From Gloeocapsa sp. PCC 7428 (GTDB lineage Bacteria > Cyanobacteriota > Cyanobacteriia > Cyanobacteriales > Chroococcidiopsidaceae), in NCBI RefSeq assembly GCF_000317555.1, contig NC_019745.1, positions 3,906,001 to 3,970,000 of the forward strand: a DNA stretch of 64,000 bases, in the 5' to 3' direction. The notes beneath the pieces are model-generated. The model worked only from the letters and a program-made list of their open reading frames with translations, was not told the origin of the DNA and did not search any database. Positions within the stretch are counted from its first letter, which is position 1. Every line of letters starts with the position of its first letter. This document shows, piece after piece, positions 30,696 to 43,469 of this stretch. Both the position numbers and the translations under genes were made by a program.

Positions 30696-31289
30696 CTACA
30701 CCGACACACTGTCTTCAAAAACAATAAATCCAAATTGCTCTGAGACGAAAATATCTGCATGGCTCAGCAACGGTTTGTTTGCTATTGTTGCTAATTGTAT
30801 TTGCTTGCTTGGACCTATACCATCGCGATCAAAGTACAAAGCGCCAGACTTTCTGTCATAAATAAAGCGATCGCTCGGATCGCCAGCGGCTGTACCGAGG
30901 CGAAACTGATGCGGCTTGATAGTTTCGCCTGGCTTTAGTCCACCACCAAAATTACGTGGGGAGACAACGATCGTGTCATCAGCAGCGATAAAGTCGGTAA
31001 TAATATCAGTTCCTTCGTTGGGAGAATCAAAGTTAAAGCGATCTGCTCCGAGTCCGCCAGTCAGCGTATCTCTTCCAGAACCTCCTGCCAAGGTGTCGTT
31101 TCCGGTTCCACCAATCAACAAGTCTCTACCAGAATCGCCGTCAAGAATATCTGCACCAGCACCGCCGCGAATTGTATCATTGCCACCGTCACCAGTGATA
31201 ATATCTGCGCCTGCTAGCCCCAATATCAAGTCATTAAAATCAGTGCCGACGATGATATCACTTCCATTGCTACCAATAATTTTTGCCAT
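30696..31289 (-). CDS. RTX-type calcium-binding repeat protein
   Basis: A 197-aa protein. Residues 1-95 are glycine/aspartate nonapeptide repeats of the GGxGxDxLx type (for example GGDGNDTIR, GGAGADILD, GGTGNDTLA, GGSGRDTLT), which form a calcium-bound parallel beta-roll. The C-terminal half (FNFDSPNEGTDIITDF and the following 90 residues) is the domain often found after RTX repeats in secreted cyanobacterial proteins. There is no N-terminal signal peptide, as expected for type I secretion with a C-terminal signal. The partner exporter is not evident: the C39-ABC exporter nearby processes double-glycine leaders, which this protein lacks. Confidence 0.88.
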   Translation of the reverse strand: MAKIIGSNGSDIIVGTDFNDLILGLAGADIITGDGGNDTIRGGAGADILDGDSGRDLLIGGTGNDTLAGGSGRDTLTGGLGADRFNFDSPNEGTDIITDFIAADDTIVVSPRNFGGGLKPGETIKPHQFRLGTAAGDPSDRFIYDRKSGALYFDRDGIGPSKQIQLATIANKPLLSHADIFVSEQFGFIVFEDSVSV

Positions 31290-31834
31290 GATGAATTGCT
31301 CGCTTGAATTGAATATTAATGAATCTGCAATTTTCCTGCTTCAATTGCTCCTCTTAAATACCTAAACATATAACTGAACCAAAATCTTAATCAACAACCT
31401 CGTGCTAATCTTTAAAAATTTTTACCTTATTAATTTTGCTTTAAAAGCTAGAGATGTTGAGCTAATATCATGACTGTTTTTCTAGAAAAAATTACTAGAT
31501 TTATGTCCATAATTAAGCTGTGTTTCACACGTGATTCATTAATACAAAAACCTAGAATGATTATTAAGCTCATTATTTTTGATCTACCAATTTAATTATG
31601 AATCTATTTAAATTACTCTGATTTGCTATTGTTAACGTTACTAAAACTCTTTATTTAAACCACTTTTCAAATTAATGCTTATTGGCTTATCTGTTAGACA
31701 TAAATACTTACTTTGCGTCTCAACAACCACTAAAAAAGCATTGACGGTTCAGTTTTCGTGTTGAATGATTAAAAGCAGGCAATACAAAAGCCTAGTCCAA
31801 CAAACAACTAGTTATTAAACACGAGGAAAATCAA
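31290..31834. promoter_or_regulatory. 545-bp AT-rich intergenic region upstream of RiPP precursor 1
   Basis: There is no ORF with protein-like features. It lies between divergent genes (RTX gene minus, precursor 1 plus). A possible promoter for precursor 1 is listed separately. Confidence 0.4.
31741..31769 (+). promoter_or_regulatory. Possible sigma70-type promoter of RiPP precursor 1
   Basis: TTGACG (31741-31746), a 17-bp spacer and AATGAT (31764-31769). This matches 5/6 and 4/6 of consensus and lies about 65 bp upstream of the start codon. Confidence 0.35.
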
Positions 31835-32065
31835 ATGGCTAGCATCAAAATTTTTGAACTAACTCCTGCTGGTGCTGAACTGTTTCAGGATAATGAAAGC
31901 TTTCTTAATGAGTTAAACGATCAAGAGTCACTAATGATATCTGGTGGCGGTGGTAGCGATGTAAACATTAGTGTCATTAGCCAGAATTCAGTTTCTATTG
32001 GTATTTCAATTAAGACAGTTTCTGTAGTATCTCAAGTCAAATCTTACGTTTTTAAGAAGAAATAG
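31835..32065 (+). CDS. RiPP precursor peptide 1, double-glycine leader, Cys-free Ser-rich core
   Basis: A 76-aa peptide. Residues 1-38 are the leader (motif SIKIxELxPxGxELFQD, then ESFLNELNDQE) ending in ISGG, the cleavage site for C39 peptidases. The 38-residue core has nine Ser and one Thr, no Cys, alternating Val/Ile, and a basic tail FKKK. Precursors 2 and 3 share a leader of exactly the same length. GAGGAAAA precedes the ATG. A strong terminator follows at 32166, so it may be transcribed alone and in excess of the enzymes. Inferred substrate of the downstream kinase/HopA1 pair; the mature structure is unknown. It is recognised as a bacteriocin-type cyanobacterial secretion leader, not as a known named product. 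Confidence 0.88.
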   Translation: MASIKIFELTPAGAELFQDNESFLNELNDQESLMISGGGGSDVNISVISQNSVSIGISIKTVSVVSQVKSYVFKKK

Positions 32066-32165
32066 GCTAATAAGTTCAACTTTAAGTTAGCTTGTTGTGT
32101 CTTAGACACACTAACCGATATCGGATGTTTTAAATCTAGTCATAATTGTTGCGAGTACTCTATAC

Positions 32166-32200
32166 GGGTCGGAGTTAGCATAGCTCTGACCTATTTTTTA
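32166..32200 (+). terminator. Intrinsic terminator after RiPP precursor 1
   Basis: GGTCGGAG (32167-32174) pairs with CTCTGACC (32184-32191) in an 8-bp stem with one G-T pair and a 9-nt loop, followed by TATTTTTTA. Confidence 0.85.
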
Positions 32201-32654
32201 TATTAAAAATATTACTGCGAATTAAAATAAAGTTAAATTACATAAGTCATTAATTTGAGACATAAATATCTTACTTTTCCTCATCAGGAATGACACAAAA
32301 TTACAAAAAAAGAACTACATTAGTGCAGCGTTAGGCGTCAAAGTAAAAAAGTAATAAGAGTTTCAAAAAGCTCTTGTGTAAGCTTTAATAATCTCAAGTC
32401 TTATTTTGCCTAAATATCAGTAGATTCTAAAATAAAAAAAACATTGAAACTTAGTTTTTAAAACATAAGATCATTGCGCCATCTCATTCGCAGCAACGTA
32501 AATAAATATTAAATATATGACATAATACTTGTTTTTTTGTCTTTTTAAAAAAATGAAATAACTTGACTAATAAAAAGCACTCTTCAATTATAAAAAGTAT
32601 ACAAGCTTAATTTTTGATTTAAGCTTGAAGATTAAAATAATTTGGAGAGAATCA
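32201..32654. promoter_or_regulatory. Very AT-rich gap upstream of RiPP precursor 2
   Basis: There is no ORF with protein features. It contains TTGACT at about 32562 with a TTATAA/TATAAA box some 19-20 bp downstream (spacing longer than ideal). It also holds a 9-bp hairpin, CAAGCTTAA (32602-32610) with TTAAGCTTG (32619-32627), just before the ribosome-binding site of precursor 2. The hairpin would sit in the 5' leader and could modulate translation or mRNA stability. Confidence 0.4.
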
Positions 32655-32894
32655 ATGGCTAGTATAAAGATTTCTGAATTAAAGCCGTTAGGCAATGAAC
32701 TATTTCAAGATGAAGAGAGCTTTTTAGATGAATTAAATGAAAGAGAAACTTTATTTATTACAGGTGGAAAGAAGAACGAGGCAAATTTAGATATATCAGT
32801 ACTGACAGTTTTAACGGAAAGTATAGGAATTTCTTTACAAACAGTTAGTATTGTGACTCAAATTAAAAAAATAAAGATAAAAATTAAACAGTGA
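32655..32894 (+). CDS. RiPP precursor peptide 2, double-glycine leader, Cys-free Ser/Thr-rich core
   Basis: A 79-aa peptide with a 38-residue leader very similar to precursor 1 (identical MASIKI start; ESFLDELNERE) ending ITGG. The 41-residue core has four Ser and four Thr, no Cys, many Ile/Val/Leu, and a strongly basic alternating tail (KKIKIKIKQ). ATG 32655 is chosen because GGAGAG lies directly upstream and MASIKI matches precursor 1; the frame extends 10 codons further upstream without similarity. It is followed after 80 bp by the kinase gene, so it is probably the first gene of the modification operon. The core can be aligned with precursor 1 over SIGIS, TVS and QIK/QVK blocks. Confidence 0.88.
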   Translation: MASIKISELKPLGNELFQDEESFLDELNERETLFITGGKKNEANLDISVLTVLTESIGISLQTVSIVTQIKKIKIKIKQ

Positions 32895-32974
32895 TAGAAA
32901 GGTTCTGCATGAGGATGAATTCCTTGAACTAATTATTATTTTGTGTTTCTGAGACTTTTCGGGAAACTGCGAAT

Positions 32975-34120
32975 ATGGAATTTGTTTTAAGTGACATAAA
33001 CGTTTTTGACCATCTGATAAGCAGAGGATTGTGTACTCAAGAGGAAGTAACGAGTAAAGTTGAGCAAAAAACTGCAAAAAACTTTAACTTACTTGTTAGC
33101 TTATCAGCGGGACGTAAACTTTTAGTTAAACAGGAACCTTACACTGGACAGCAAGAGGCTGCTAGTGAGTTTCTACGAGAATGGCGAATTCATGAATTTA
33201 TTCAAAGATTTCCAGAATTAGAATACATTAGTGCTTGGTTGCCAGAGGTAATTCATTTTGATGCAGACCGTTCTATCATTGTTGTGAATTATCTGACGAA
33301 TTATCGTGATTTAGCTGAGTTTTACGCTCAAGAAAATAACTTTTCACCTGAAATTGCAGGTGCAATTGGCTCAGCATTAGCAGCTATTCACCGCGCAACG
33401 CTAAATTGCCAAGAGCATCAAGAATTTTTTGTTCAAGGTACAGCAATTGAAACGGATCAAGAAGTACAGTTAACTGAAGGTTTAGACAGAATTAGTCCAG
33501 AAATCTTTAGTCAGGTTCCTGATGACGGCTTGAAATTCTTTGCGCTTTATCAGCGCTATGACAGCTTAGGAAAAGCGATCGCCGAACTTGGTAGCGCATA
33601 CCAACCCTGCTGTTTAACGCACAATGACCTCAAGCTTAATAACATTCTCTTACCGTTGGATTGGGAAAACCAGCTACAAATTCGTCTGATTGACTGGGAA
33701 CGATCTGGTTGGGGCGATCCGGCGTTTGATTTAGGGGCGCTGATGGCAAGTTATCTTGTACTATGGCTAACGAGCTTGGTTGTGAGTAAATCAATTGGCA
33801 TCGAAGAAGCTTTGCGTTTAGCGATGACGCCGCTGGAAGTCTTGCAGCCTTCACTTGTTGCGTTGATGCGTAGTTACTGCGATCGCTTTCCAGAAATTTT
33901 TGAACTGCGTCCTGAGTTTCTCCAACGGATGATGCAATTTTCTGGGTTGAATTTGATCAAAGCAATTCAATCGATGCTGCAATATCAGAAATCTTTTGGT
34001 AATACAGGAATTTGTTTATTACAGGTAGCCAAGACTTTACTATGTCGTCCTGAAGCATCCATCCGAACTATTTTTGGCATGGAAGAATCAGAACTGACTT
34101 GCCTTGTTCGTTCCACTTAA
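32975..34120 (+). CDS. APH-fold kinase of the RiPP cluster (predicted Ser/Thr peptide kinase)
   Basis: A 381-aa aminoglycoside-phosphotransferase-fold protein with its catalytic elements intact: Lys52 in LLVKQE, the catalytic loop THNDLKLNN (Asp218, Asn223), Asp240 in LIDWE and GDPAFDLG. Antibiotic resistance is improbable given the neighbours. Kinases of this fold paired with a HopA1-family protein are the dehydration pair of class V lanthipeptides and thioamitides, where Ser/Thr is phosphorylated and then eliminated. The inferred substrates here are the Ser/Thr-rich precursor cores. It lies 80 bp after precursor 2 and 20 bp before the HopA1 gene. The N-terminal 40 residues may be a leader-binding part, but that is a guess. 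Confidence 0.82.
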   Translation: MEFVLSDINVFDHLISRGLCTQEEVTSKVEQKTAKNFNLLVSLSAGRKLLVKQEPYTGQQEAASEFLREWRIHEFIQRFPELEYISAWLPEVIHFDADRSIIVVNYLTNYRDLAEFYAQENNFSPEIAGAIGSALAAIHRATLNCQEHQEFFVQGTAIETDQEVQLTEGLDRISPEIFSQVPDDGLKFFALYQRYDSLGKAIAELGSAYQPCCLTHNDLKLNNILLPLDWENQLQIRLIDWERSGWGDPAFDLGALMASYLVLWLTSLVVSKSIGIEEALRLAMTPLEVLQPSLVALMRSYCDRFPEIFELRPEFLQRMMQFSGLNLIKAIQSMLQYQKSFGNTGICLLQVAKTLLCRPEASIRTIFGMEESELTCLVRST

Positions 34121-34140
34121 TTATTAATTGTAGGCACAAT

Positions 34141-35217
34141 ATGCTGTTGTTGGATTCGCTGCATCAATTAGTAGACGAGCGATTACGAACTTCCTTACAA
34201 GATATTGTTAACAATATTCATATCGAATCTAACTTTTGTATTCGCCATCCCCATTACAAACCCTTACAACTTCCTACTGAAGCCGTAGAGAGATTCGAGC
34301 GATTACCGAATAGCCTGCAAATGAAATACCTCAATTTGCAGCTACAAAATTTCCTCTATGGCATTTATTACAACGGCTTTTTGCAAACAGCGCTTGCTCC
34401 TACTGAGGATAGTAAAACACCACAACATCGCGAAAATAATACCTTTTTGGGTGTAGACCTCGCATTTTATGAGCGATTGCACGACAGTAACAACGGCGAA
34501 GGCTATTTCGATCCTGGTTGGCTGGTAGTAAGACACGACGATGATGACTTCGTTGTCACCAAAGGTGGATTAAATTTGTGGGTGAGCGATCGCCATCTGC
34601 AACCGGAAGCAGTGCCATCGATTGGTGAAGAAATCGCGATTCGTTTACCTCGCAATCGGGTACAAAACGGCTTCTATATGGCGGTGGGTAATGCAGGTTC
34701 TCCGAGTGATGACGAGCAACTGACGCGGATTTATTTTAATTTCGGCCCAGAAGGTGCGGTTGCTGTTATGGATAGCTTGACGCGGCGACTTAACGAAATT
34801 GCTCTACCTTTTCTATTCAAGGTTCTCTACGATCCTGCGTACTACAAGCGCTACGACGCGGGGGTACTGTATTTCGCGAAAATTCACTACGCAGCTATTC
34901 GACGGGTACTACAGCAAGTTTATGCTGAAAACCAAGCGCATTTTCGCGCCCAAGTTCCATTGTTTACGAAGTTTTTAGCACCAGGACTCGCGATCGCTGA
35001 AGAACCAGATTTGAAATTTGCCGAACAAGAAAGTTTTGGCATGAATCGCTGCCAACTCGTTGCGAGTGGCTTGCTAGAAGCAAAAGAAGACAATGACGAG
35101 TCTCCAGAAAGGCGTATGAAAGCAATTTTGCAACAGTTTTCCTCGTTAGGGTTGGAACTGAATCGTTCTTACCTCAATGCAAATTCTGAAGACATTTATA
35201 CTCCGCTACAGTTATGA
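34141..35217 (+). CDS. HopA1-family protein of the RiPP cluster (predicted dehydration/lyase partner)
   Basis: A 358-aa protein with features I associate with the HopA1 effector family: the LYGIYYNGF segment near the N-terminus, then DPGWLVVR, FNFGPEGAVAVMDSL, PFLFKVLYDPAYYKRYDAGV (given in pieces) and a C-terminal PLFTKFLAPGLAIAEEP / SFGMNRCQLVASGL block. In class V lanthipeptide and thioamitide clusters HopA1-like proteins are partners of APH kinases in Ser/Thr dehydration. ATG 34141 is preferred over an upstream in-frame TTG at 34099, which would overlap the kinase gene. Its stop overlaps the start of the next gene (ATGA), indicating translational coupling. The activity is not demonstrated by sequence alone. 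Confidence 0.82.
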   Translation: MLLLDSLHQLVDERLRTSLQDIVNNIHIESNFCIRHPHYKPLQLPTEAVERFERLPNSLQMKYLNLQLQNFLYGIYYNGFLQTALAPTEDSKTPQHRENNTFLGVDLAFYERLHDSNNGEGYFDPGWLVVRHDDDDFVVTKGGLNLWVSDRHLQPEAVPSIGEEIAIRLPRNRVQNGFYMAVGNAGSPSDDEQLTRIYFNFGPEGAVAVMDSLTRRLNEIALPFLFKVLYDPAYYKRYDAGVLYFAKIHYAAIRRVLQQVYAENQAHFRAQVPLFTKFLAPGLAIAEEPDLKFAEQESFGMNRCQLVASGLLEAKEDNDESPERRMKAILQQFSSLGLELNRSYLNANSEDIYTPLQL

Positions 35218-36239
35218 AGATTACCGATCTCACCGCCCCCACACCCACACAAGATGTTATTCCTGTGAGGAAGCAATTTGCCAATTCTGATCTACCTTTT
35301 TATCGTCCCCTCGGTCGCACAAACTTAATGGTAAGTTGCCTAGGCTTGGGAGGTGGCGGACAGATTTCGAGTGAAGATACGCTTTATGCGTTTGACCAGG
35401 GAATCAATTTCTTTTTCTACTCTAGCGACCTCCACCACTATCTTTATAGTTCAATGGCGGGGGCGTTACGTCAATTATGCGGACGCAAATCCGCAGTGCG
35501 CGAGCAAGTGGTGCTTGCAACGGTATCGTACATTGTGAAAACTCCAGAGGCGATTTTCTCTTCGCTTTACGATCAATTTGTTGATTTGGGTATTGACTAC
35601 ATCGATATCTTTTTTTGGGGTTGGATTGGTGCAGATAATGCGGGTGATTTGCAAAACTGCTTGAGTGCTTCTAACGATCTGCGCGGTTCCAATACCGTAT
35701 GTCAGCGCACGATGGAAAGAATATTTGGTACTTCAGAGCGCCTTAAGAAAATGGGTGCAGTTCGCTATATTGGTGCGTCTTTCCACGATCATCATTTAGC
35801 GCGTCAGTGGCTCAACAATCCGCTATTAGATGTGGTGATGGTACGGCATAATGTCGCTCATCGTACTGCCCAACAAGAGGTTTTCGCAAAGCTCGATCCT
35901 CACGACTCGCGGCGTTCAGGAATTGTCACGTTTAAATCGGCTGGAATGCACAATTTTCTGGGAGATCCACCTGTCGGTTTACCACCAGGATGCTGGCGAC
36001 CAAAAGTTCCTGATTTGTATCGCTATTCGCTAAGTCAAAACTGTGTTGATGTGTGTTTGACAGGGTTAACACGGCGCGAAGAAGTGGATGCAGCGATCGC
36101 CAATGTGCAACAAGGTAAGCTCTCGGCTACAGAACTCGACTATCTCGCGCTGTATGGTGATTTGCATCGCAATCGCGTCAAAGTGCAAGATGTTCCGGCT
36201 GAACGCTGGTATCAGCCAACGCTTGCAGCAGCTTTGTAA
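35214..36239 (+). CDS. Aldo/keto-reductase-like protein with degenerate catalytic tetrad, in RiPP cluster
   Basis: A 341-aa protein with the AKR fold: RPLGRTNLMVSCLGLGGG at the N-terminus, then DQGINFFF, ALRQL, GIDYIDI, VRYIGAS and CLTGLTRREEVDAAI. The usual catalytic positions look replaced: the Asp of the FFDTA motif is Phe68 (NFFFYSS), the Lys of the ATK motif is Val104 (LATVSY), and the His of the DLYxLH motif is Gly136 (DIFFWG). The Tyr position is ambiguous. It is therefore uncertain whether it reduces anything; a structural or binding role is possible. If active it could reduce dehydroalanine/dehydrobutyrine. It overlaps the HopA1 gene by 4 bp and precedes a parvulin-like gene by 18 bp. 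Confidence 0.85.
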   Translation: MKITDLTAPTPTQDVIPVRKQFANSDLPFYRPLGRTNLMVSCLGLGGGGQISSEDTLYAFDQGINFFFYSSDLHHYLYSSMAGALRQLCGRKSAVREQVVLATVSYIVKTPEAIFSSLYDQFVDLGIDYIDIFFWGWIGADNAGDLQNCLSASNDLRGSNTVCQRTMERIFGTSERLKKMGAVRYIGASFHDHHLARQWLNNPLLDVVMVRHNVAHRTAQQEVFAKLDPHDSRRSGIVTFKSAGMHNFLGDPPVGLPPGCWRPKVPDLYRYSLSQNCVDVCLTGLTRREEVDAAIANVQQGKLSATELDYLALYGDLHRNRVKVQDVPAERWYQPTLAAAL

Positions 36240-36257
36240 ATTGATTGAGGTAAAGCT

Positions 36258-37013
36258 ATGTCGGAAACTTTAGAAATCGACCAACTTGTTCTACCCACAA
36301 TTGCTCGTGCAACTGATGCAGAGATTACGACCTACCTCCGTCGTTCGGGTAAATTTGCTGAAATTGCTGCTTTAGCTGAACGCGATGCTTTTATTTTACA
36401 GCTTTGCGCGCAGTACGAAGTGACCGTTGCAGATGAAGAATGGCAAGCGGCTGGTGATGTTTTTCGCACCGAACACAAAATTCTAGGCGTTGCAGAAACT
36501 TATGCATGGTTAGCGCGCCAACGGATAAGTGTCGAAGATTGGTCTGAGGGAATTAAAATTAGGCTTCTAGCGAAGAAGTTGAAAGCGGAGCTTTTTGGAG
36601 AAGTTGTCGATAGTTATTACTTCCAAAATCGAGAGGAATATCAGCGGGTTGCGCTGTCACAAATTCTTGTGCTTGATTTAACGATCGCGATGAAACTAGC
36701 CAAGGCGTTGCGCGAGGAACAAGCTTCCTTCTGTGCTTTGGCGTTGGAGTACTCGAAGGGAAAACAATCGCAAGAAAATGGCGGGTTTGCGGGAGTGCGC
36801 TTTTTAACGGAATTGTTGCCAGAAATTTCCCAGGCGATCGCAAATGCTAAAGAAGGTGAAATTATTGGTCCAATTCATACAAAACTCGGCTATCACATTC
36901 TTCGAGTTGAAAAAAGATTTCCTCCAGAACTTAGCGAAGCAGTGCGAGAGCAAATTTTAGATACGTTATTTGAACTTTGGATTCAGGAAAACAGTAAAGC
37001 TTCTCATGCTTGA
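36258..37013 (+). CDS. Parvulin-type (SurA-like) protein without signal peptide, RiPP cluster
   Basis: A 251-aa protein with an N-terminal helical SurA-like chaperone region (about residues 15-125, YAWLARQRISVEDW) and a C-terminal PpiC/parvulin domain (about 130-235): SQILV, ENGGFAGVRF, LLPEISQAI, EGEIIGPIHTKLGYHIL. No signal peptide or membrane segment is present, so it acts in the cytoplasm, unlike periplasmic SurA/PrsA. Parvulin-like genes often accompany C39-ABC/HlyD export genes in cyanobacteria. A role in binding or isomerising precursor peptides before export is inferred. It is last in the kinase-HopA1-AKR run and 61 bp upstream of precursor 3. Confidence 0.82.
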   Translation: MSETLEIDQLVLPTIARATDAEITTYLRRSGKFAEIAALAERDAFILQLCAQYEVTVADEEWQAAGDVFRTEHKILGVAETYAWLARQRISVEDWSEGIKIRLLAKKLKAELFGEVVDSYYFQNREEYQRVALSQILVLDLTIAMKLAKALREEQASFCALALEYSKGKQSQENGGFAGVRFLTELLPEISQAIANAKEGEIIGPIHTKLGYHILRVEKRFPPELSEAVREQILDTLFELWIQENSKASHA

Positions 37014-37074
37014 CGACTCCCCTGTTACCTACTTGTCTTAACCTCAAAGCAAATCGTTATTAGGAGTGCATCCA

Positions 37075-37365
37075 ATGTCTTGTCTAAAAATCTCCGATCT
37101 ATCTCCTACTGGTTTAGAACTATTCCAGGATGCTGAAAATTTTTTGAATGAATTAAGCGATCGCGAAATAGAAAACATTACAGGTGGCTTTTTCAGTTTT
37201 TTTACAGATGAATTCCTGCCAATCCCCAGTGACTTAGTGCTTAAAACTGTAGTAAAAACACGAGTTGTTTCTGTGGTAACTAAATCAGTTCAGGTAAAAA
37301 CCAAAGGTATCAAAACCTTTGGAGTCTCGCATACGCACAAAACCATCGTTACTATTAAACGCTAA
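37075..37365 (+). CDS. RiPP precursor peptide 3, double-glycine leader, long Cys-free Thr-rich core
   Basis: A 96-aa peptide. The 38-residue leader (CLKISDLSPTGLELFQD, then ENFLNELSDRE) ends ITGG, the same length and pattern as the other two. The 58-residue core differs: an aromatic/acidic start (FFSFFTDEF), then a Lys/Val/Thr-rich stretch with five Ser and nine Thr, and HTH near the end. It has no Cys in the core; the only Cys is residue 3 of the leader. The block RVVSVVTKSV echoes TVSVVSQVKS of precursor 1. ATG 37075 is chosen because TAGGAGTG just upstream is a good RBS; a GTG at 37066 lies inside that RBS. It is convergent with the second parvulin-like gene. Confidence 0.85.
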   Translation: MSCLKISDLSPTGLELFQDAENFLNELSDREIENITGGFFSFFTDEFLPIPSDLVLKTVVKTRVVSVVTKSVQVKTKGIKTFGVSHTHKTIVTIKR

Positions 37366-37404
37366 AGCCACATCAAATCACTTATGATTTTACCGAATCA
37401 TCCT

Positions 37405-38139
37405 TTACAACTGGAAATTAATTTCTACCTTTGCAATCTGTTGCTTAAGCCACTCCGAAAATAAATCAGAAAGAATTTTATAACGTAGTTCATCGTCTAA
37501 TTGCGGTTGAATAATTTCCTCAACGAAGATCAGATGAACTCCTTTTGAGGTAATAATTGGTTTGAGGAGTTGTGGTGGAGATGCAGCAAATACCGCAGCA
37601 GAAATCTCAGGTTTTAAATCTTTCCTGTGGAGAATCCCACGATATCCACCACAGCGCCTTAGTTCAGATTCCTCTATATATTGACTGGCCACGTCAGCAA
37701 AACTTATTTCTTTTTCGGTAATAGCATAGAAGAGTTCCAATGCTAAATCTTGATCGTTCAATATAACTTCATATAATACTACACTAGCATAATCAAGTTG
37801 ATGCTCAACAAAAACAGGTTCAACGCTATCTGCAAATAGATATTGCGCTAGTTTTGCAGAAATAACATTTGTATAAACTATTTCCTCAAAATCATCGACA
37901 GATATATGATGTTGCTCTAACCATTTCCAAGTATCCTCTGCGTGATGAAGCTCATTGAGAATCCGCAGGTTATCTGCCCCTTGTTGTAACTCTTCTTGTG
38001 TTGCTACGATACCTTTTTCTGCTGCCATCAGAGCAATAATTTTTCGATTCATAATTCCTTCAATAATTGTAGGAAGTTGACACGTCAGCTTGATTTCATG
38101 CAGGATATTGCTAGGAGTAATGTTAATGGTGGTTAACAT
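37405..38139 (-). CDS. Second parvulin-type protein without signal peptide, transporter side of RiPP locus
   Basis: A 244-aa protein homologous in layout to the 36258-37013 gene: an N-terminal helical region (EEDTWKWLEQHHISVDDF-like, matching YAWLARQRISVEDW) and a C-terminal parvulin domain (LYEVILN, RRCGGYRGILHRKDL, PEISAAVF, LLKPIITSKGVHLIFVEE). No signal peptide is visible. It is last in the minus-strand unit HTH, C39-ABC, HlyD, parvulin. The two parvulin-like genes are thus divided between the modification unit and the export unit, which suggests distinct client peptides or steps. No enzymatic test can be made from sequence. Confidence 0.8.
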   Translation of the reverse strand: MLTTINITPSNILHEIKLTCQLPTIIEGIMNRKIIALMAAEKGIVATQEELQQGADNLRILNELHHAEDTWKWLEQHHISVDDFEEIVYTNVISAKLAQYLFADSVEPVFVEHQLDYASVVLYEVILNDQDLALELFYAITEKEISFADVASQYIEESELRRCGGYRGILHRKDLKPEISAAVFAASPPQLLKPIITSKGVHLIFVEEIIQPQLDDELRYKILSDLFSEWLKQQIAKVEINFQL

Positions 38140-38287
38140 GATTTAGGCCTTAAATGAAATAGTAAATTTTGTGATACTCAGATATTTTTTTAGGTTATGT
38201 CCGATGCAGTATATTTATAATTCTAAATACTAGAATTATAAATTACACTACTTAATTGTGTTGCTTTAATTGCACAAAATTACCTTG

Positions 38288-39580
38288 TTAGAGTTCCAAA
38301 CCACCAACTTGTAATTTCTTGAAAGGATCGAGAATAAAGTCTATAACTCGGCGCTGTCGAATGATAACTTCAGCAGTTGCTGTCTGACCTGGAGTTAAAG
38401 GAATACGTTTATGAGTTGTTTGAATATAAGGCTGAGGAACTGTAATTTCTAGTTTGTATGTATCTACCTGACCTTGAATTGTTTCTTTACTTTGTGAATC
38501 AGGTGATACCCAAATTAAAAAGCCAGGTACTATCCCATAATCCTGAAAAGGATAAGCATCAAATTTGATTTTGACAGGTAATCCAGGACGAAGAAAACCG
38601 CTTTGCTGACTAGACATTTCGGCTTTCAGAACAAGAGTAGTACCACTAGGTGCAATTTGAGCGATCGTTTGCCCTGTTTGGACTACAGCACCTGCGCGTT
38701 GAATAGGTAACTGAAAAATGATGCCATCAATGGGGGCGTGTAAAATATGCTGTTGTAGTCGTAACAGTAACGATGAAATTTGATTTTTAGTTTGGGCAAT
38801 ATCTGCTTTTAAATCGATGATTTGTGTTTGAATTTCTTTGATTTGTCTTTCACTTTCTAAAATTGCTAATTCACCAGCACGCAAATTACTTTCGTAAGTA
38901 CTCTGCTGTTTTTCAAGTTCAGCTTTAGCTTGTTCGATATCTGATTGTGCTTTTTTTAAACGCTGCTCGTTTTCAATCATAGTTCGTTCCGCCATGTCTA
39001 CTTGTACTCCAGAAATGATGCCTTCTCTTTGGAGTCGTCGATAGCGTTGCACTGTATCTCGGTCTTTACTTAATAATTGGTGTGCGGCTTGTGCAGCTTC
39101 TTGATTAAAATTCTGCTGTTGGCGAATTTGAGTAGTTTGTGCGAGTTGTGCTGAGGCTTGTGCTTGATTTTGTAGTCGTTGTGTACGGATACTGATTGCT
39201 AGTTGATTTTTAATAAGTTGTAACTGTGGTAAACGATTTTGCTGTCCTTCTAATTTTGCTCTCGCTTGTTGAAGTTCGGTTAAAATTGCCTCGGATTCTA
39301 AAACTAATAAACTTTGCCCAGCTTTAACAGTTTGACCTTCTTCAACATTAATTGCTGCAACAGTACCGCCAACAGGGACATCAAGTCTTACGATTTTTCC
39401 TTTGGGTTCTAGGCGTCCTCTAGCACTACCAGTTTCATCAACTTTAGCTAGCATTGTCCAAGGTAAAAGAATGACAGCAAACATTAACAAGAAATACAGT
39501 AATCCTCGCGTCCAAACTCTTGGTAAGGTATCGATTAATTCTTGTGTGGGATAAGACCAATTTTCGCTTTGGTTAGGCAT
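38288..39580 (-). CDS. HlyD-family periplasmic adaptor subunit
   Basis: A 430-aa membrane-fusion protein with a short cytoplasmic N-terminus and one transmembrane helix (about residues 28-48, LLYFLLMFAVILLPWTML). A lipoyl half-motif follows (VPVGGTVAAINVEEGQTVKAG), then a long coiled coil (about 115-275), the second lipoyl half (APIDGIIFQLPI...GAVVQTGQ) and a beta-barrel/membrane-proximal domain. It bridges the inner-membrane ABC exporter to an outer-membrane TolC-type channel, which is not in this window. It lies 175 bp downstream of the C39-ABC gene on the same strand, the expected pairing for double-glycine peptide export. Confidence 0.93.
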   Translation of the reverse strand: MPNQSENWSYPTQELIDTLPRVWTRGLLYFLLMFAVILLPWTMLAKVDETGSARGRLEPKGKIVRLDVPVGGTVAAINVEEGQTVKAGQSLLVLESEAILTELQQARAKLEGQQNRLPQLQLIKNQLAISIRTQRLQNQAQASAQLAQTTQIRQQQNFNQEAAQAAHQLLSKDRDTVQRYRRLQREGIISGVQVDMAERTMIENEQRLKKAQSDIEQAKAELEKQQSTYESNLRAGELAILESERQIKEIQTQIIDLKADIAQTKNQISSLLLRLQQHILHAPIDGIIFQLPIQRAGAVVQTGQTIAQIAPSGTTLVLKAEMSSQQSGFLRPGLPVKIKFDAYPFQDYGIVPGFLIWVSPDSQSKETIQGQVDTYKLEITVPQPYIQTTHKRIPLTPGQTATAEVIIRQRRVIDFILDPFKKLQVGGLEL

Positions 39581-39755
39581 TGGTAATAGTTCAATTTTTT
39601 GAGGAGGTAAGGCTTGCTTTACCTGTTGAATTTTGAGTAAAGCTTGTTGACGAACTATAACTACGCATAGTAGTAATTATTTTGTTTAATAAATAATCTT
39701 CTACATCGTGGCTAGTGAATAAGATGCAAGATTAAGTGGGGTTTTAATTGCAAAG

Positions 39756-42700
39756 CTAAGAAGTAATTCCTGTGATTTGTTGCTGATTGAGGTAGAAATA
39801 TTGACCGCGTTTTGTCATGAGTTCTTCGTGCGTGCCACTTTCAACTAATACTCCTCGATCTAAGACTAAAATCTTGTTAGCTTGGCGCACGGTAGAGAGA
39901 CGATGGGCGATAATTATTGTTGTGCGTCCTTGTAAAAGAGTACTGAGGTTATTTTGAATAATTCGCTCAGATTCGGCATCAAGATGACTTGTTGCTTCAT
40001 CGAGAACAAGGACGTGGGGATTCCCAAGAAAAGCGCGGGCGATCGCAATTCTTTGGCGTTGTCCTCCAGACAGCATTCCACCACCCTCACCAATTTTAGT
40101 TTCATAACCCATTGGTAGTTCTTGAATAAACTGATCCGCACCTGCAAGCTTCGCGGCTTGGCGAATATCCTCTGGAGACGCTTCGGGATGTCCAAGGCTA
40201 ATATTTTCCCAAATCGTACCGCCAAAGAGAAACGTATCTTGATCGACAACACCAATCTGCTGACGGAGCGATCGCAGCGCTACACTCGTAATATCGTAAC
40301 CATCGATCAAAATCTTGCCTTCGGTGGGTGGATAAAGCCCTAAAACTAACTTAGAAATTGTCGTTTTTCCAGAACCGCTACGACCAACAAGCGCGACTGT
40401 TTCCCCTGGTTTTACCTCAAAGCTAATATTCTCTAATGTATTCACCTCGCTCTCTGGATGGTAACGAAACGTCACTTGCTCAAAGCGAATGTGACCTTGT
40501 AATGTTGGTAATAATTGCCGTGGTTGATTTTGTAAATCTTCTTCTGGCTGAGTTTCAATCACATCATTAATTCGCTCGACTGCAATAACCACTTCTTGCA
40601 GTTGATTCCACAAAACTGTTAAGCGTTGAAAAGGATTTATCACATTACTCAACAACATATTGAAAGCAACTAATTGCCCAATAGTCAGTTGGTTTTGAAT
40701 CACCTGCCATGCACCAAACCAAAGCAATGCTGTGGTTGCTAGCGCTTCGATTGTTGAGCTAAAAACTAAGAAACTGTTATCAATAACTTGCCCCGAAAAA
40801 GAAGTTCGCACTGACTTATTCAGAAGTTCTTCCCAATGCCAGCGTACTGTCTGCTCAACTGCCATCGATTTAATTGTCCGAATGCCTGTGAGCGCTTCAA
40901 TTAAGTAACTATTTTGCTCGGCGAGGGAATTAAAAATTTCTTTGGAGATGCGGCGAAAAAAGGGCGTAGCAATTAACGCTAACAAGAAAAATGGTGGTAC
41001 AACAACTAAGACAAGCAGTGCCATTTGCCAGCTGTACCAAAACATTAATCCTGCATAAACAAATACTGTGAGGAGATCGAGAAAGATTGACAGTGCTTCG
41101 CCGGTCAGAAATTGCTGAATTTTATAATTTTCTTGAACGCGCGAGATGATATCGCCAACATAGCGAGACTCAAAAAAACTGAGGGGTAAGCGAAACGTAT
41201 GTTTGATAAAACCAACAATTAACGCTAAATCAATTCGGTGAGCCGTGTGGTCTAGTAAATATTGTCGTAGACCAATCATCGCTACTCGGAATAAACCAAA
41301 GATCAGCAAACCCATTCCTACAGCAGTCAACGTGAGAGTGCTGCGTTGCACCACCACTCGGTCGAGTAGTAGCTGTGTTAGTAGTGGCGTAATTAGTCCA
41401 AAAACCTGCAAAAGAAGTGAAGCAATCAGTACCTCTAGCAAAACTAAAGTGTGAGGTTTAATTAACTCAATAAACTGCCACCACGTTTGCTTTGTGTCTT
41501 TTGTCTGATCGAGTAGGGCGGTAGGTTGAAGTAATAATGTGTAACCTGTCCAACTTGCCTTAAACGCTGCTGAACTCAGAGTTTTTTGACCTGTGGCAGG
41601 ATCGCCAATGACAACTTGCTTGGGAGTGATTTCGTAAACAACAACATAATGTCTTCCTTCCCAATGCGCGATCGCAGGTAAAGTTTGTTCTGCTAGTTTG
41701 TTGAGGCTAGCTTTTACTGGTCGAGTTATAAACCCAATGCTTTCTGCTGCTGCTGCTAAGCCCCGCAAAGATGCTCCGTTACGGTCAACATTAGCAATAT
41801 CGCGCAATCGATTGACGCTAAAGCGTTTTCCCCAATAACGCCCAATCATGACAAGACAAGCAGCACCACAATCAGCAGTACTTTGTTGCGCAAAAAAAGG
41901 ATAACGTCGTGTAAATCGCTGCCACCATTGACCAACTTTTACCGTAGGACGAGGAAAGTAAGCTTGGTTGATTTTGACCTGATTTTTGCGGTCAACGGCA
42001 ACTTCTGTCAATGAAATGCGTGTCTCTGGTTCTACAGCAGCGACTTGTGGTGCATCTGCTGTAGTAGCTAATTGTGGTAGATACTGGAGTGCGCTTTGCC
42101 AATGCACATCACGCAGAACATACAACTCAGTTGATACAGTTGCTTGCCAAGTTTTATCTTTGGACGGTTTCGGGAAATGGATATCGCCTGTAGTCAGTTT
42201 GTCTTGCGCAGAGTTTACGAGTTCTCCGCGCCGTACTAGCCATAACCGCGATTCTGCAACATCAGCAGAAACGTTATGTCTACAGATATGTTGCTCTAGC
42301 AGCGGTAATATCTGCATTAACTTGTCTACAGAAGCATTGTGAAAAAAGCTACTTTGGCGACACAACAGAAGTAAGTCTCGGAGTACTGCTTGTTGATATA
42401 GGCGATCGCGAAGTGCCGGATAAGTTGCAATCAAGCTTTGTAAGCAATCGTAACTGAGATAACAAAGCTTTAAATTAATAGATGCTCTGATAGCATAAGG
42501 TTGAAATTGTTCTGGAGTAAATAGCGTTACTTCACCAAATATCGAACCTGCCTCTAACGAGGTTATCAGACTATCGCTGCTATCAAGAAGTCGGGCTTTG
42601 CCTGCAAGAACTAAATAAATGCCGCGATGCGCATCGGCGGTACACCAAAATTTCTTACCTGCATTTGGTTGGATAATTTCAGCTTGCTGATAACAGCCGA

Positions 42701-42788
42701 AGAGTTCGCGTTCAGAAAGCGTTAGCCCTATTTGGGTAAAGAGTTGACTTAGCTGTGCTAATGAAAACTCTGATAATTTGTGTGCCAT
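39756..42788 (-). CDS. C39-peptidase ABC exporter with cyclic-nucleotide-binding-like N-terminus
   Basis: A 1010-aa bifunctional protease/transporter. Residues about 1-130, perhaps to 240, resemble cyclic-nucleotide-binding domains (YLVLAGKARLLD, GSIFGEVTLF). Residues about 297-425 form a C39 peptidase with Cys307 in TADCGAACL, His380 in GRHYVVVY and Asp396 in GDPATG, a complete triad. Six transmembrane helices follow (about 440-720). Then comes an ATPase domain with Walker A GRSGSGKTT, signature LSGGQRQR and Walker B VLVLDEATS. It cleaves double-glycine leaders during export, matching the ISGG/ITGG ends of the three precursors. HetC-like exporters with this layout are known in cyanobacteria. 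Confidence 0.94.
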   Translation of the reverse strand: MAHKLSEFSLAQLSQLFTQIGLTLSERELFGCYQQAEIIQPNAGKKFWCTADAHRGIYLVLAGKARLLDSSDSLITSLEAGSIFGEVTLFTPEQFQPYAIRASINLKLCYLSYDCLQSLIATYPALRDRLYQQAVLRDLLLLCRQSSFFHNASVDKLMQILPLLEQHICRHNVSADVAESRLWLVRRGELVNSAQDKLTTGDIHFPKPSKDKTWQATVSTELYVLRDVHWQSALQYLPQLATTADAPQVAAVEPETRISLTEVAVDRKNQVKINQAYFPRPTVKVGQWWQRFTRRYPFFAQQSTADCGAACLVMIGRYWGKRFSVNRLRDIANVDRNGASLRGLAAAAESIGFITRPVKASLNKLAEQTLPAIAHWEGRHYVVVYEITPKQVVIGDPATGQKTLSSAAFKASWTGYTLLLQPTALLDQTKDTKQTWWQFIELIKPHTLVLLEVLIASLLLQVFGLITPLLTQLLLDRVVVQRSTLTLTAVGMGLLIFGLFRVAMIGLRQYLLDHTAHRIDLALIVGFIKHTFRLPLSFFESRYVGDIISRVQENYKIQQFLTGEALSIFLDLLTVFVYAGLMFWYSWQMALLVLVVVPPFFLLALIATPFFRRISKEIFNSLAEQNSYLIEALTGIRTIKSMAVEQTVRWHWEELLNKSVRTSFSGQVIDNSFLVFSSTIEALATTALLWFGAWQVIQNQLTIGQLVAFNMLLSNVINPFQRLTVLWNQLQEVVIAVERINDVIETQPEEDLQNQPRQLLPTLQGHIRFEQVTFRYHPESEVNTLENISFEVKPGETVALVGRSGSGKTTISKLVLGLYPPTEGKILIDGYDITSVALRSLRQQIGVVDQDTFLFGGTIWENISLGHPEASPEDIRQAAKLAGADQFIQELPMGYETKIGEGGGMLSGGQRQRIAIARAFLGNPHVLVLDEATSHLDAESERIIQNNLSTLLQGRTTIIIAHRLSTVRQANKILVLDRGVLVESGTHEELMTKRGQYFYLNQQQITGITS

Positions 42789-42815
42789 GATTTGCAGATA
42801 TGACGCTGAAATCAG

Positions 42816-43469
42816 TTATTTACTCGGCTTGACAGCATTAAAAGTCCAAAGTGGATTTGCTTGTGCAGAAGATTGCAAGTTACTAATCTTGATACTCGCT
42901 GCTTTGTCTTGAGAAAAGCTTTTTGTTTCTTTTTGCACGCGGATTTGCCTTAAAGATAATCCTAATTTTTGCAATATCCGACTGATGTGGCGATCGCTGA
43001 CTTCAACTCCAAATTCTTTTGCGAGTTGCTTTCTTAACCATTCTGCTGTCCAGCACCGAAATGAATAACCATATTCGCGAGGACTATGATTAACTAATTC
43101 CTGTAATCGAGCAATATGATGGGCATCAATTGTTTTTGGGCGACCAATTGGGCGATCGTTCCATTTATGCGCTAATCCGGCTTTCGCCATAGCAATCCAG
43201 TACCTTGCCATTTCTTGAGAGCATCCCAATGCTGCGCAGATTTCTGCTTGTGAGTACCCCATATCTGCTAATAGCATGATTTCTATTCGACGATGATATT
43301 CTGGACGTAAATTACTCTGCCTACTCTTCAACAAAAACTCTCTTTGAAAACTTGTTAAAAACTGACTTTCTTCTATATATAATTCCTCAAAATTACGTTG
43401 TTGAGGCTGATAAATATGAGATTTATCGTTATTTATACTTAAGTTATGAAAAGGTTCTTTATTCATCAT
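42816..43469 (-). CDS. Solo winged helix-turn-helix protein (IS630-type transposase N-terminal domain)
   Basis: A 217-aa protein. Residues about 60-190 match the HTH/winged-HTH pair found at the N-terminus of IS630-family transposases: MGYSQAEICAALGCSQEMARYW, in two pieces, then GRPKTID and a second HTH (WTAEWLRKQL, VSDRHISRIL, QKLGLSLR). The catalytic DDE domain is absent and no inverted repeats are seen, so this is not an intact IS. The gene lies 27 bp upstream of the C39-ABC gene on the same strand. It is probably a domesticated DNA-binding regulator of the export unit; a decayed transposon end is the alternative, but the clean ORF and operon position argue against decay. Confidence 0.78.
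   Translation of the reverse strand: MMNKEPFHNLSINNDKSHIYQPQQRNFEELYIEESQFLTSFQREFLLKSRQSNLRPEYHRRIEIMLLADMGYSQAEICAALGCSQEMARYWIAMAKAGLAHKWNDRPIGRPKTIDAHHIARLQELVNHSPREYGYSFRCWTAEWLRKQLAKEFGVEVSDRHISRILQKLGLSLRQIRVQKETKSFSQDKAASIKISNLQSSAQANPLWTFNAVKPSK

What the first reader, a model, noticed from the sequence alone, without database searches (positions are those of the whole stretch)
31741..43469. RiPP locus with a class V-type dehydration pair but Cys-free cores
Three double-glycine precursors sit with an APH-fold kinase and a HopA1-family protein, the Ser/Thr dehydration pair of class V lanthipeptides and thioamitides (established knowledge). Yet none of the three cores contains Cys, so no thioether ring can form within them. 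There is no LanB, LanC, LanM or YcaO gene in the window. The product may be a linear dehydroamino-acid-rich, cationic peptide, or the pair may do something other than dehydration (for example leave phosphoserine). I cannot tell whether this exact combination has been described.
Basis: partly seen in the sequence, partly recalled or inferred. Interest (0 to 1): 0.88.

Follow-up and report, generated by a model that had tools for sequence, protein, structure and literature searches.

The report
Ring-free dehydrated peptide cluster in cyanobacteria
A cyanobacterial gene cluster appears to strip water from serines and threonines of small cysteine-free peptides, which therefore cannot form the usual sulfur rings, and it carries an unusual reductase-like protein that, in every copy found, sits near such dehydrating enzymes, suggesting a further, untested way in which bacteria finish these peptides.

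Summary
Three double-glycine precursors with Cys-free cores lie with a LxmK-like kinase, a HopA1 protein, an aldo-keto-reductase-like (AKR) protein, two parvulins and a C39/HlyD exporter. The HopA1 model best matches LxmY of the lexapeptide dehydratase and keeps its Lys/Arg/Tyr; of 88 cyanobacterial HopA1 proteins 58 keep the lysine, and the 29 Gln/Glu variants (one clade) all lie where no precursor of this leader family was detected. Dehydration is thus likelier than phosphoserine. Cys-free cores are the family rule (180 of 195), and a matching family is in print, uncharacterised (Eyles 2021, Family 1A). The addition is the AKR: of 19 copies 15 lie with HopA1 and 4 with LanM, with at least two partner changes; none of six LanMs there keeps the full LanC zinc triad, and 30 of 31 precursors are Cys-free. 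Best reading: dehydration without cyclisation, then AKR action on dehydroamino acids, most likely reduction to D-Ala/D-Abu. Against: canonical AKR residues are replaced, and within HopA1 loci the AKR does not track Cys-freeness. In passing: the Lys-less pair lies beside phylloquinone genes in 20 of 29 loci. No chemistry was tested.

The parts
31835..32065 (+). precursor A1, 76 aa, leader ...ISGG, core of 38 aa, no Cys, 10 Ser/Thr
   Evidence: nine of ten core Ser/Thr kept as Ser/Thr in one Gloeocapsopsis crepidinum homologue, ten of ten in the other
32655..32894 (+). precursor A2 (start placed at an internal ATG of ORF 32625-32894), leader ...ITGG, core of 41 aa, no Cys, 8 Ser/Thr
32975..34120 (+). 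LanK/LxmK-like APH-fold kinase
   Evidence: window has K52, D218, N223 and D240
34141..35217 (+). LanY/LxmY-like HopA1 phospho-Ser/Thr lyase (358 aa from the ATG; K227, R237, Y244, with R196 upstream)
35214..36239 (+). AKR-fold protein without the canonical tetrad; start overlaps the HopA1 stop by 4 bases
36258..37013 (+). parvulin (PpiC-type) protein; sub-threshold match to TIGR04500, putative peptide maturation
   Evidence: next to the AKR in the HopA1+AKR loci laid out
37075..37365 (+). precursor A3 (start placed at an internal ATG of ORF 37066-37365), leader ...ITGG, core of 58 aa, no Cys, 14 Ser/Thr
37405..38139 (-). second parvulin-type protein
38288..39580 (-). HlyD-type membrane fusion protein
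   Evidence: TIGR01843 3.2e-62, above its cut-off
39756..42788 (-). ABC exporter with C39 leader peptidase and an N-terminal cyclic-nucleotide-binding-type domain

Best explanation
A thioether-free, class V-like RiPP cluster. The kinase phosphorylates core Ser/Thr and the HopA1 protein eliminates phosphate, giving Dha/Dhb (inferred from CaoK/CaoY and LxmKY; fold and residues shown here). With no Cys in the cores and no LanC, LanM or YcaO gene found in the genome, no lanthionine ring can form within a core. The AKR-fold protein, whose start overlaps the lyase stop, then acts on dehydro residues, most likely reducing them to D-Ala/D-Abu (inferred from where it occurs; not shown). The parvulins are guessed to be folding helpers. 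The C39 exporter cuts after GG and secretes the peptides with HlyD (inferred from domains). Rough personal confidence by step: dehydration 0.85; AKR acts downstream of dehydration 0.7; that action is reduction 0.45.
For: (a) The AlphaFold model of HopA1 matches LxmY of the lexapeptide dehydratase first (9dk3_B E 1.5e-16, TM 0.69/0.77), and K227/R237/Y244 align with Lys/Arg/Tyr of LxmY at the spacing reported for CaoY K219/R229/Y236. (b) In 88 HopA1 proteins that Lys is K in 58 (56 of them in loci with a detected precursor of this leader family), Q or E in 29 (none in such loci), Y in one second copy; the 29 form one clade, 100/98. (c) Core Ser/Thr are kept as Ser/Thr at 31 of 32 positions between window and Gloeocapsopsis, other residues identical at 64 of 104; on strict identity Ser/Thr 29 of 32, p=0.002. 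(d) Of 19 distinct AKR copies 15 lie in loci with HopA1 (14 with the kinase in view; the L118 contig stops short) and 4 in loci with LanM, and starred branches force two changes of partner (copies found through). (e) In the four LanM+AKR loci 30 of 31 precursors are Cys-free against 22 of 65 in LanM loci without AKR, and 0 of 6 LanMs keep the full zinc triad against 17 of 18 in Cys-bearing loci. (f) Precedent for HopA1/kinase dehydration followed by reduction to D-Ala: kintamdin, with KinJ as putative reductase (PMC9415263 passages); class V lanthipeptides with F420H2-dependent reductases (passages).
Against: The AKR has lost canonical residues: D->F68, K->V104, H->G136, and nicotinamide contacts N->F190 and Q->M209 (profile-profile alignment; which residues those are is recalled), so usual carbonyl chemistry is unlikely and NAD(P)H binding is unproven. 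Within HopA1 loci the AKR does not track Cys-free cores (33 of 41 precursors with AKR, 147 of 154 without). Of 56 HopA1 loci with precursors 42 lack the AKR, so it is not needed for the basic pathway. Four LanM loci with only Cys-free precursors lack the AKR. Counted by locus the LanM contrast is weak: 3 of 4 AKR loci strictly all Cys-free against 4 of 21 (p=0.053). The kinase is below the LxmK cut-off and did not find LxmK in the PDB by sequence. No mass data.
Confidence: 0.5

Rival explanations
1. Dehydration happens, but the AKR-fold protein is not a reductase: it is a redox-inactive scaffold, or guides another fate of Dha/Dhb (for example addition of Lys or His nitrogen), so the product keeps Dha/Dhb or has nitrogen cross-links.
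For: Canonical tetrad residues and nicotinamide contacts are replaced while other residues (among them Y78, Y106, W135, W137, H191, R211, H212, H216) are invariant in 19 of 19; the window cores carry several Lys; 42 of 56 HopA1 loci with precursors have no AKR.
Against: AKR fold; known fates of dehydro residues in HopA1 pathways include D-Ala by a reductase; no cross-linking enzyme was recognised among the ten locus proteins searched with profiles.
Confidence: 0.3
2. The pair leaves phosphoserine/phosphothreonine: phosphorylation without elimination.
For: Kinase catalytic residues are conserved; a sister clade of HopA1 lacks the lyase Lys, which suggests that the pair can persist without elimination.
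Against: The window's HopA1 keeps K227/R237/Y244 and best matches LxmY; a CaoY active-site mutant gave mostly phosphorylation (PMC9486802 passages; the passage shown does not name the residue mutated).
Confidence: 0.07
3. Thioethers form between a core and a Cys elsewhere (another precursor, or glutathione).
For: Eight of 41 precursors in HopA1+AKR loci, all in other genomes, hold a single Cys.
Against: All three window cores are Cys-free; no LANC_like gene found in the genome.
Confidence: 0.05
4. Ordinary class II-type unmodified bacteriocins; the enzymes act elsewhere.
For: Double-glycine leaders and a C39 exporter also serve unmodified bacteriocins (general knowledge, recalled).
Against: Gene order and 4-base overlap, conserved core Ser/Thr, and the lyase-Lys/leader segregation.
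Confidence: 0.08

Closest known systems
HopA1-associated precursor Family 1A of cyanobacteria (Eyles et al. 2021, PMC8153245; section 16 read)
   Same: HopA1 plus phosphotransferase, several double-glycine precursors per locus, cores without conserved Cys, cyanobacteria only
   Different: The section read does not mention an AKR, the lyase-Lys split or any product; membership of these exact sequences was not checked (supplement not readable here)
Class V lanthipeptides: cacaoidin, lexapeptide; and kintamdin (passages)
   Same: HopA1/kinase dehydratase; D-amino acids from dehydro residues
   Different: Those contain Cys-derived rings and use F420H2-dependent or putatively such reductases; here no Cys, no cyclase found, an AKR-fold protein instead
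LanJA, LanJB, LanJC reductases (PMC11519912 and PMC7268733 passages)
   Same: proposed net reaction
   Different: LanJA Zn-dependent dehydrogenase, LanJB flavin-dependent, LanJC F420H2-dependent or luciferase-like; no AKR-type LanJ showed up in the searches named in the full report
LanM-like synthetase without zinc ligands and its Cys-free precursor in Pseudanabaena galeata (PMC11356792 passages)
   Same: proposed dehydration without cyclisation, Cys-free core, cyanobacterium
   Different: LanM rather than LanK/LanY; no AKR mentioned in the passages seen

Membership tests
LanK/LanY (class V) dehydratase | HopA1-family lyase with the Lys, Arg and Tyr of CaoY/LxmY | tested here: met
LanK/LanY (class V) dehydratase | APH-fold kinase encoded beside it | tested here: met
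   Pfam APH 2.9e-14; catalytic residues present
LanK/LanY (class V) dehydratase | kinase passes the curated LxmK (NF038156) cut-off | tested here: not met
   93.8 bits against 315, though E 1.1e-26 over nearly the full length
Class V lanthipeptide | Cys in the core to form a thioether (Lan/MeLan/AviCys) | tested here: not met
   no Cys in any of three cores; so not filed as a lanthipeptide
Thioamitide | YcaO/TfuA thioamide-forming enzymes | tested here: not met
   no YcaO match in the genome (controls rang); TfuA not tested
Eyles Family 1A | cyanobacterial double-glycine leader family beside HopA1 and phosphotransferase, cores without conserved Cys | tested here: met
   agreement with the paper's description, not with its sequence list
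LanJ-type dehydroamino-acid reductase | reduction of Dha/Dhb to D-Ala/D-Abu | not testable with these tools
   needs co-expression and chiral analysis
Aldo-keto reductase, catalytically canonical | AKR fold | tested here: met
   Foldseek top hits are AKR-fold oxidoreductases, best E 4.6e-12 (model mean pLDDT 69)
Aldo-keto reductase, catalytically canonical | Asp/Tyr/Lys/His tetrad | tested here: not met
   D->F68, K->V104, H->G136; Tyr uncertain (tetrad recalled)

The most novel reading that the evidence does not exclude
The AKR-fold family is a further class of dehydroamino-acid-processing RiPP enzyme, working without the canonical AKR tetrad. It was recruited by two unrelated dehydratase systems (LanK/LanY, and LanMs that lost their cyclase zinc site) and makes thioether-free peptides rich in D-Ala/D-Abu or another dehydro-derived residue.
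Probability: 0.45. Interest if true: 0.8.

Novelty: new variant of a known kind. Interest (0 to 1): 0.62.

Why it matters
It turns a puzzle (a lanthipeptide-type dehydratase with nothing to cyclise onto) into a testable pathway: dehydration as an end in itself, or as a step towards D-amino acids. If the AKR protein acts on Dha/Dhb, it would be a new enzyme type usable with two dehydratase families. The Lys-to-Gln split of HopA1 gives a natural contrast between lyase-competent and presumably lyase-dead kinase/HopA1 pairs.

Tried and rejected
Beta-helix (alternating D/L, polytheonamide-like) cores: suggested by eye, not supported. The 170-degree hydrophobic moment of the three window cores has mean z 0.72, none above 1.65; 2 of 37 further cores from AKR loci exceed 1.65. 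What does differ: of 149 cores scored from loci without AKR 84 exceed z 1.65 for alpha-amphipathicity (mean 1.77), of the 37 with AKR none (mean -0.64); cores under 20 residues were left out.

AKR as the cause of Cys-free cores within HopA1 loci: rejected (33 of 41 with AKR, 147 of 154 without).

Phosphoserine product for the window: disfavoured (see rivals).

The LanM control used leader profiles seeded from AKR-linked loci, so it may be biased; 13 of 34 control loci gave no precursor and are not in the 65. By locus the contrast is 3 of 4 against 4 of 21 (p=0.053; 0.0055 if all four AKR loci were counted, but L095 does have one Cys-bearing core). The zinc-site count does not depend on precursors for the 6 AKR-linked LanMs, but its other groups do. 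Fisher p-values ignore relatedness. The L123 AKR frame is broken; its longest piece alone went into the AKR tree.

Full report
WHAT IS THERE. The window lies in a 5.88-Mb genome; the nearest named relative of the locus is Gloeocapsopsis crepidinum LEGE 06123 (AKR 91% identical; Chroococcidiopsidaceae, Cyanobacteriota). On the + strand lie two precursors, kinase, HopA1, AKR, parvulin and a third precursor; on the - strand a second parvulin, HlyD and a C39-ABC exporter. The AKR start overlaps the HopA1 stop by 4 bases, as in several relatives, for example L112 and L113.

THE DEHYDRATASE. HopA1 matches PF17914 (1.6e-58). Its model (mean pLDDT 75.7) finds LxmY of the lexapeptide dehydratase complex first among PDB structures, ahead of Pseudomonas syringae effector structures, class III synthetases and SpvC/OspF-type lyases. 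A sequence profile finds LxmY as its only PDB match at E<=0.001 (5.6e-13), aligning K227, R237 and Y244 with Lys, Arg and Tyr; the spacing equals that reported for CaoY K219/R229/Y236 (PMC9486802, passages). The kinase resembles LxmK below the cut-off.

A NATURAL CONTRAST. HopA1 occurs in 56 of 386 genomes of the phylum sampled. I compared 88 HopA1 proteins from the fetched loci, after dropping L112 and L114 as duplicates of L032 and L092; not every place listed was fetched. The Lys is K in 58, Q in 25, E in 4 and Y in 1. Of the 58, 56 lie in loci with a detected leader-family precursor (the other two: L090, and L118 on a cut contig); of the 29 Q/E, none. The 29 form one clade (100/98), so this is one event, not 29 tests. 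In 20 of these 29 loci, and in 0 of 58 K loci, at least three of five phylloquinone-pathway-type genes lie nearby (similarity to one locus, L055, where profiles name MenE, MenC, MenA and isochorismate synthase over their cut-offs and the thioesterase below its cut-off). Kinase K52, D218 and N223 are kept in 29 of 29.

CYS-FREE CORES ARE THE RULE. In HopA1 loci 212 of 228 precursors (180 of 195 at E<1e-8) have no Cys in the core (L112 and L114 dropped). This fits Eyles et al. 2021 (PMC8153245; section 16 read): Family 1A, 570 peptides in 183 cyanobacterial clusters, without conserved core Ser, Thr or Cys. Between window and Gloeocapsopsis, core Ser/Thr are kept as Ser/Thr at 31 of 32 aligned positions while other residues are identical at 64 of 104; on strict identity Ser/Thr 29 of 32, p=0.002.

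THE AKR. It was found in 9 of 386 cyanobacterial genomes at E<=1e-30 and at 12 cyanobacterial places with 64-91% identity in a pattern-based scan of one genome per species (the other 31 hits were 22-49% identical over part of the protein, and distant kin can be missed). Nineteen distinct copies were compared: 15 in loci with HopA1 (14 with the kinase in view), 4 in loci with LanM (L094, L095, L120, L122); starred branches force two changes of partner. In L122 precursors lie between AKR and LanM; in the other three the AKR is next to a LanM. LanM identity: TIGR03897 at 3e-259 to 2e-265 for one protein each of L094, L095 and L122, a second one each in L094 and L095; L120 by similarity and alignment.

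LANM CONTROL. In the four LanM+AKR loci 30 of 31 precursors are Cys-free (the exception is in L095); of 34 LanM loci without AKR, 21 gave precursors, 22 of 65 Cys-free. By locus: 3 of 4 against 4 of 21 strictly all Cys-free (p=0.053). The aligned LanC zinc triad (motifs WC.G and C[CH]G; ligand identity recalled) is intact in 0 of 6 AKR-linked LanMs, 0 of 4 in Cys-free loci without AKR, 17 of 18 in Cys-bearing loci and 10 of 13 where no precursor was found (proteins over 600 aa). One such LanM with a Cys-free precursor was described in Pseudanabaena galeata, where it is also said that zinc-ligand mutants of LctM still dehydrate (PMC11356792 passages). So two unrelated dehydratases, one without a cyclase gene and one with a broken cyclase site, share this AKR.

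WHAT THE AKR MIGHT DO. Foldseek puts the model in the AKR fold (mean pLDDT 69, C-terminal part poor). Profile alignment with generic AKRs shows D->F68, K->V104, H->G136, and nicotinamide contacts N->F190 and Q->M209 (role of these positions recalled). F68 is kept in 18 of 19, V104 and G136 in 19 of 19. A reductase of usual mechanism is therefore unlikely; C=C reduction with other residues, or a non-redox role, stay open. Known routes use LanJA, LanJB and LanJC (PMC11519912; PMC7268733; passages). My searches for an AKR in lanthipeptide biosynthesis (open-access full texts only) showed none in their listings; one search gave 0 papers, one review that I did not open.

LIMITS. No wet data; adjacency is not proof; many loci are related; leader detection is profile-based; supplementary tables of Eyles et al. 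were not readable, so exact membership was not checked. LanB absence is not shown.

Noticed in passing
L055:7417-16364 and 19 further loci with Lys-less HopA1: A HopA1/kinase pair with the lyase Lys replaced by Gln/Glu, but kinase K52/D218/N223 intact, lies beside phylloquinone-pathway-type genes in 20 of 29 such loci and in 0 of 58 Lys-bearing loci; no precursor of this leader family was detected there.
   Followed up: partly
window 30696-31289 (-): A 197-aa RTX-type calcium-binding repeat protein; related proteins lie in five loci, all with AKR and precursors, window included.
   Followed up: no
window 42816-43469 (-): A helix-turn-helix protein resembling the start of IS630 transposases (below cut-off); ORFs of similar size sit beside the exporter in other loci (by position only), so it may be a regulator rather than a transposase.
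   Followed up: no
L167, L174, L179, L180: LanM loci with only Cys-free precursors, no AKR and an incomplete LanC zinc triad; all six detected cores in each of L179 and L180 end in Lys-Trp.
   Followed up: partly
L038:15861-17549 and relatives: An M16-peptidase-looking gene (named by eye, not by profile) near precursors in 20 loci, none with AKR.
   Followed up: no
L177 (G091:C3:2952000-2971900): A LanM with intact zinc triad and a HopA1/kinase pair lie in the same 20-kb stretch.
   Followed up: no
L113:5524-5823, L092:12085-12339: Moorena-type precursor cores with a repeated FPIKT-like unit.
   Followed up: no
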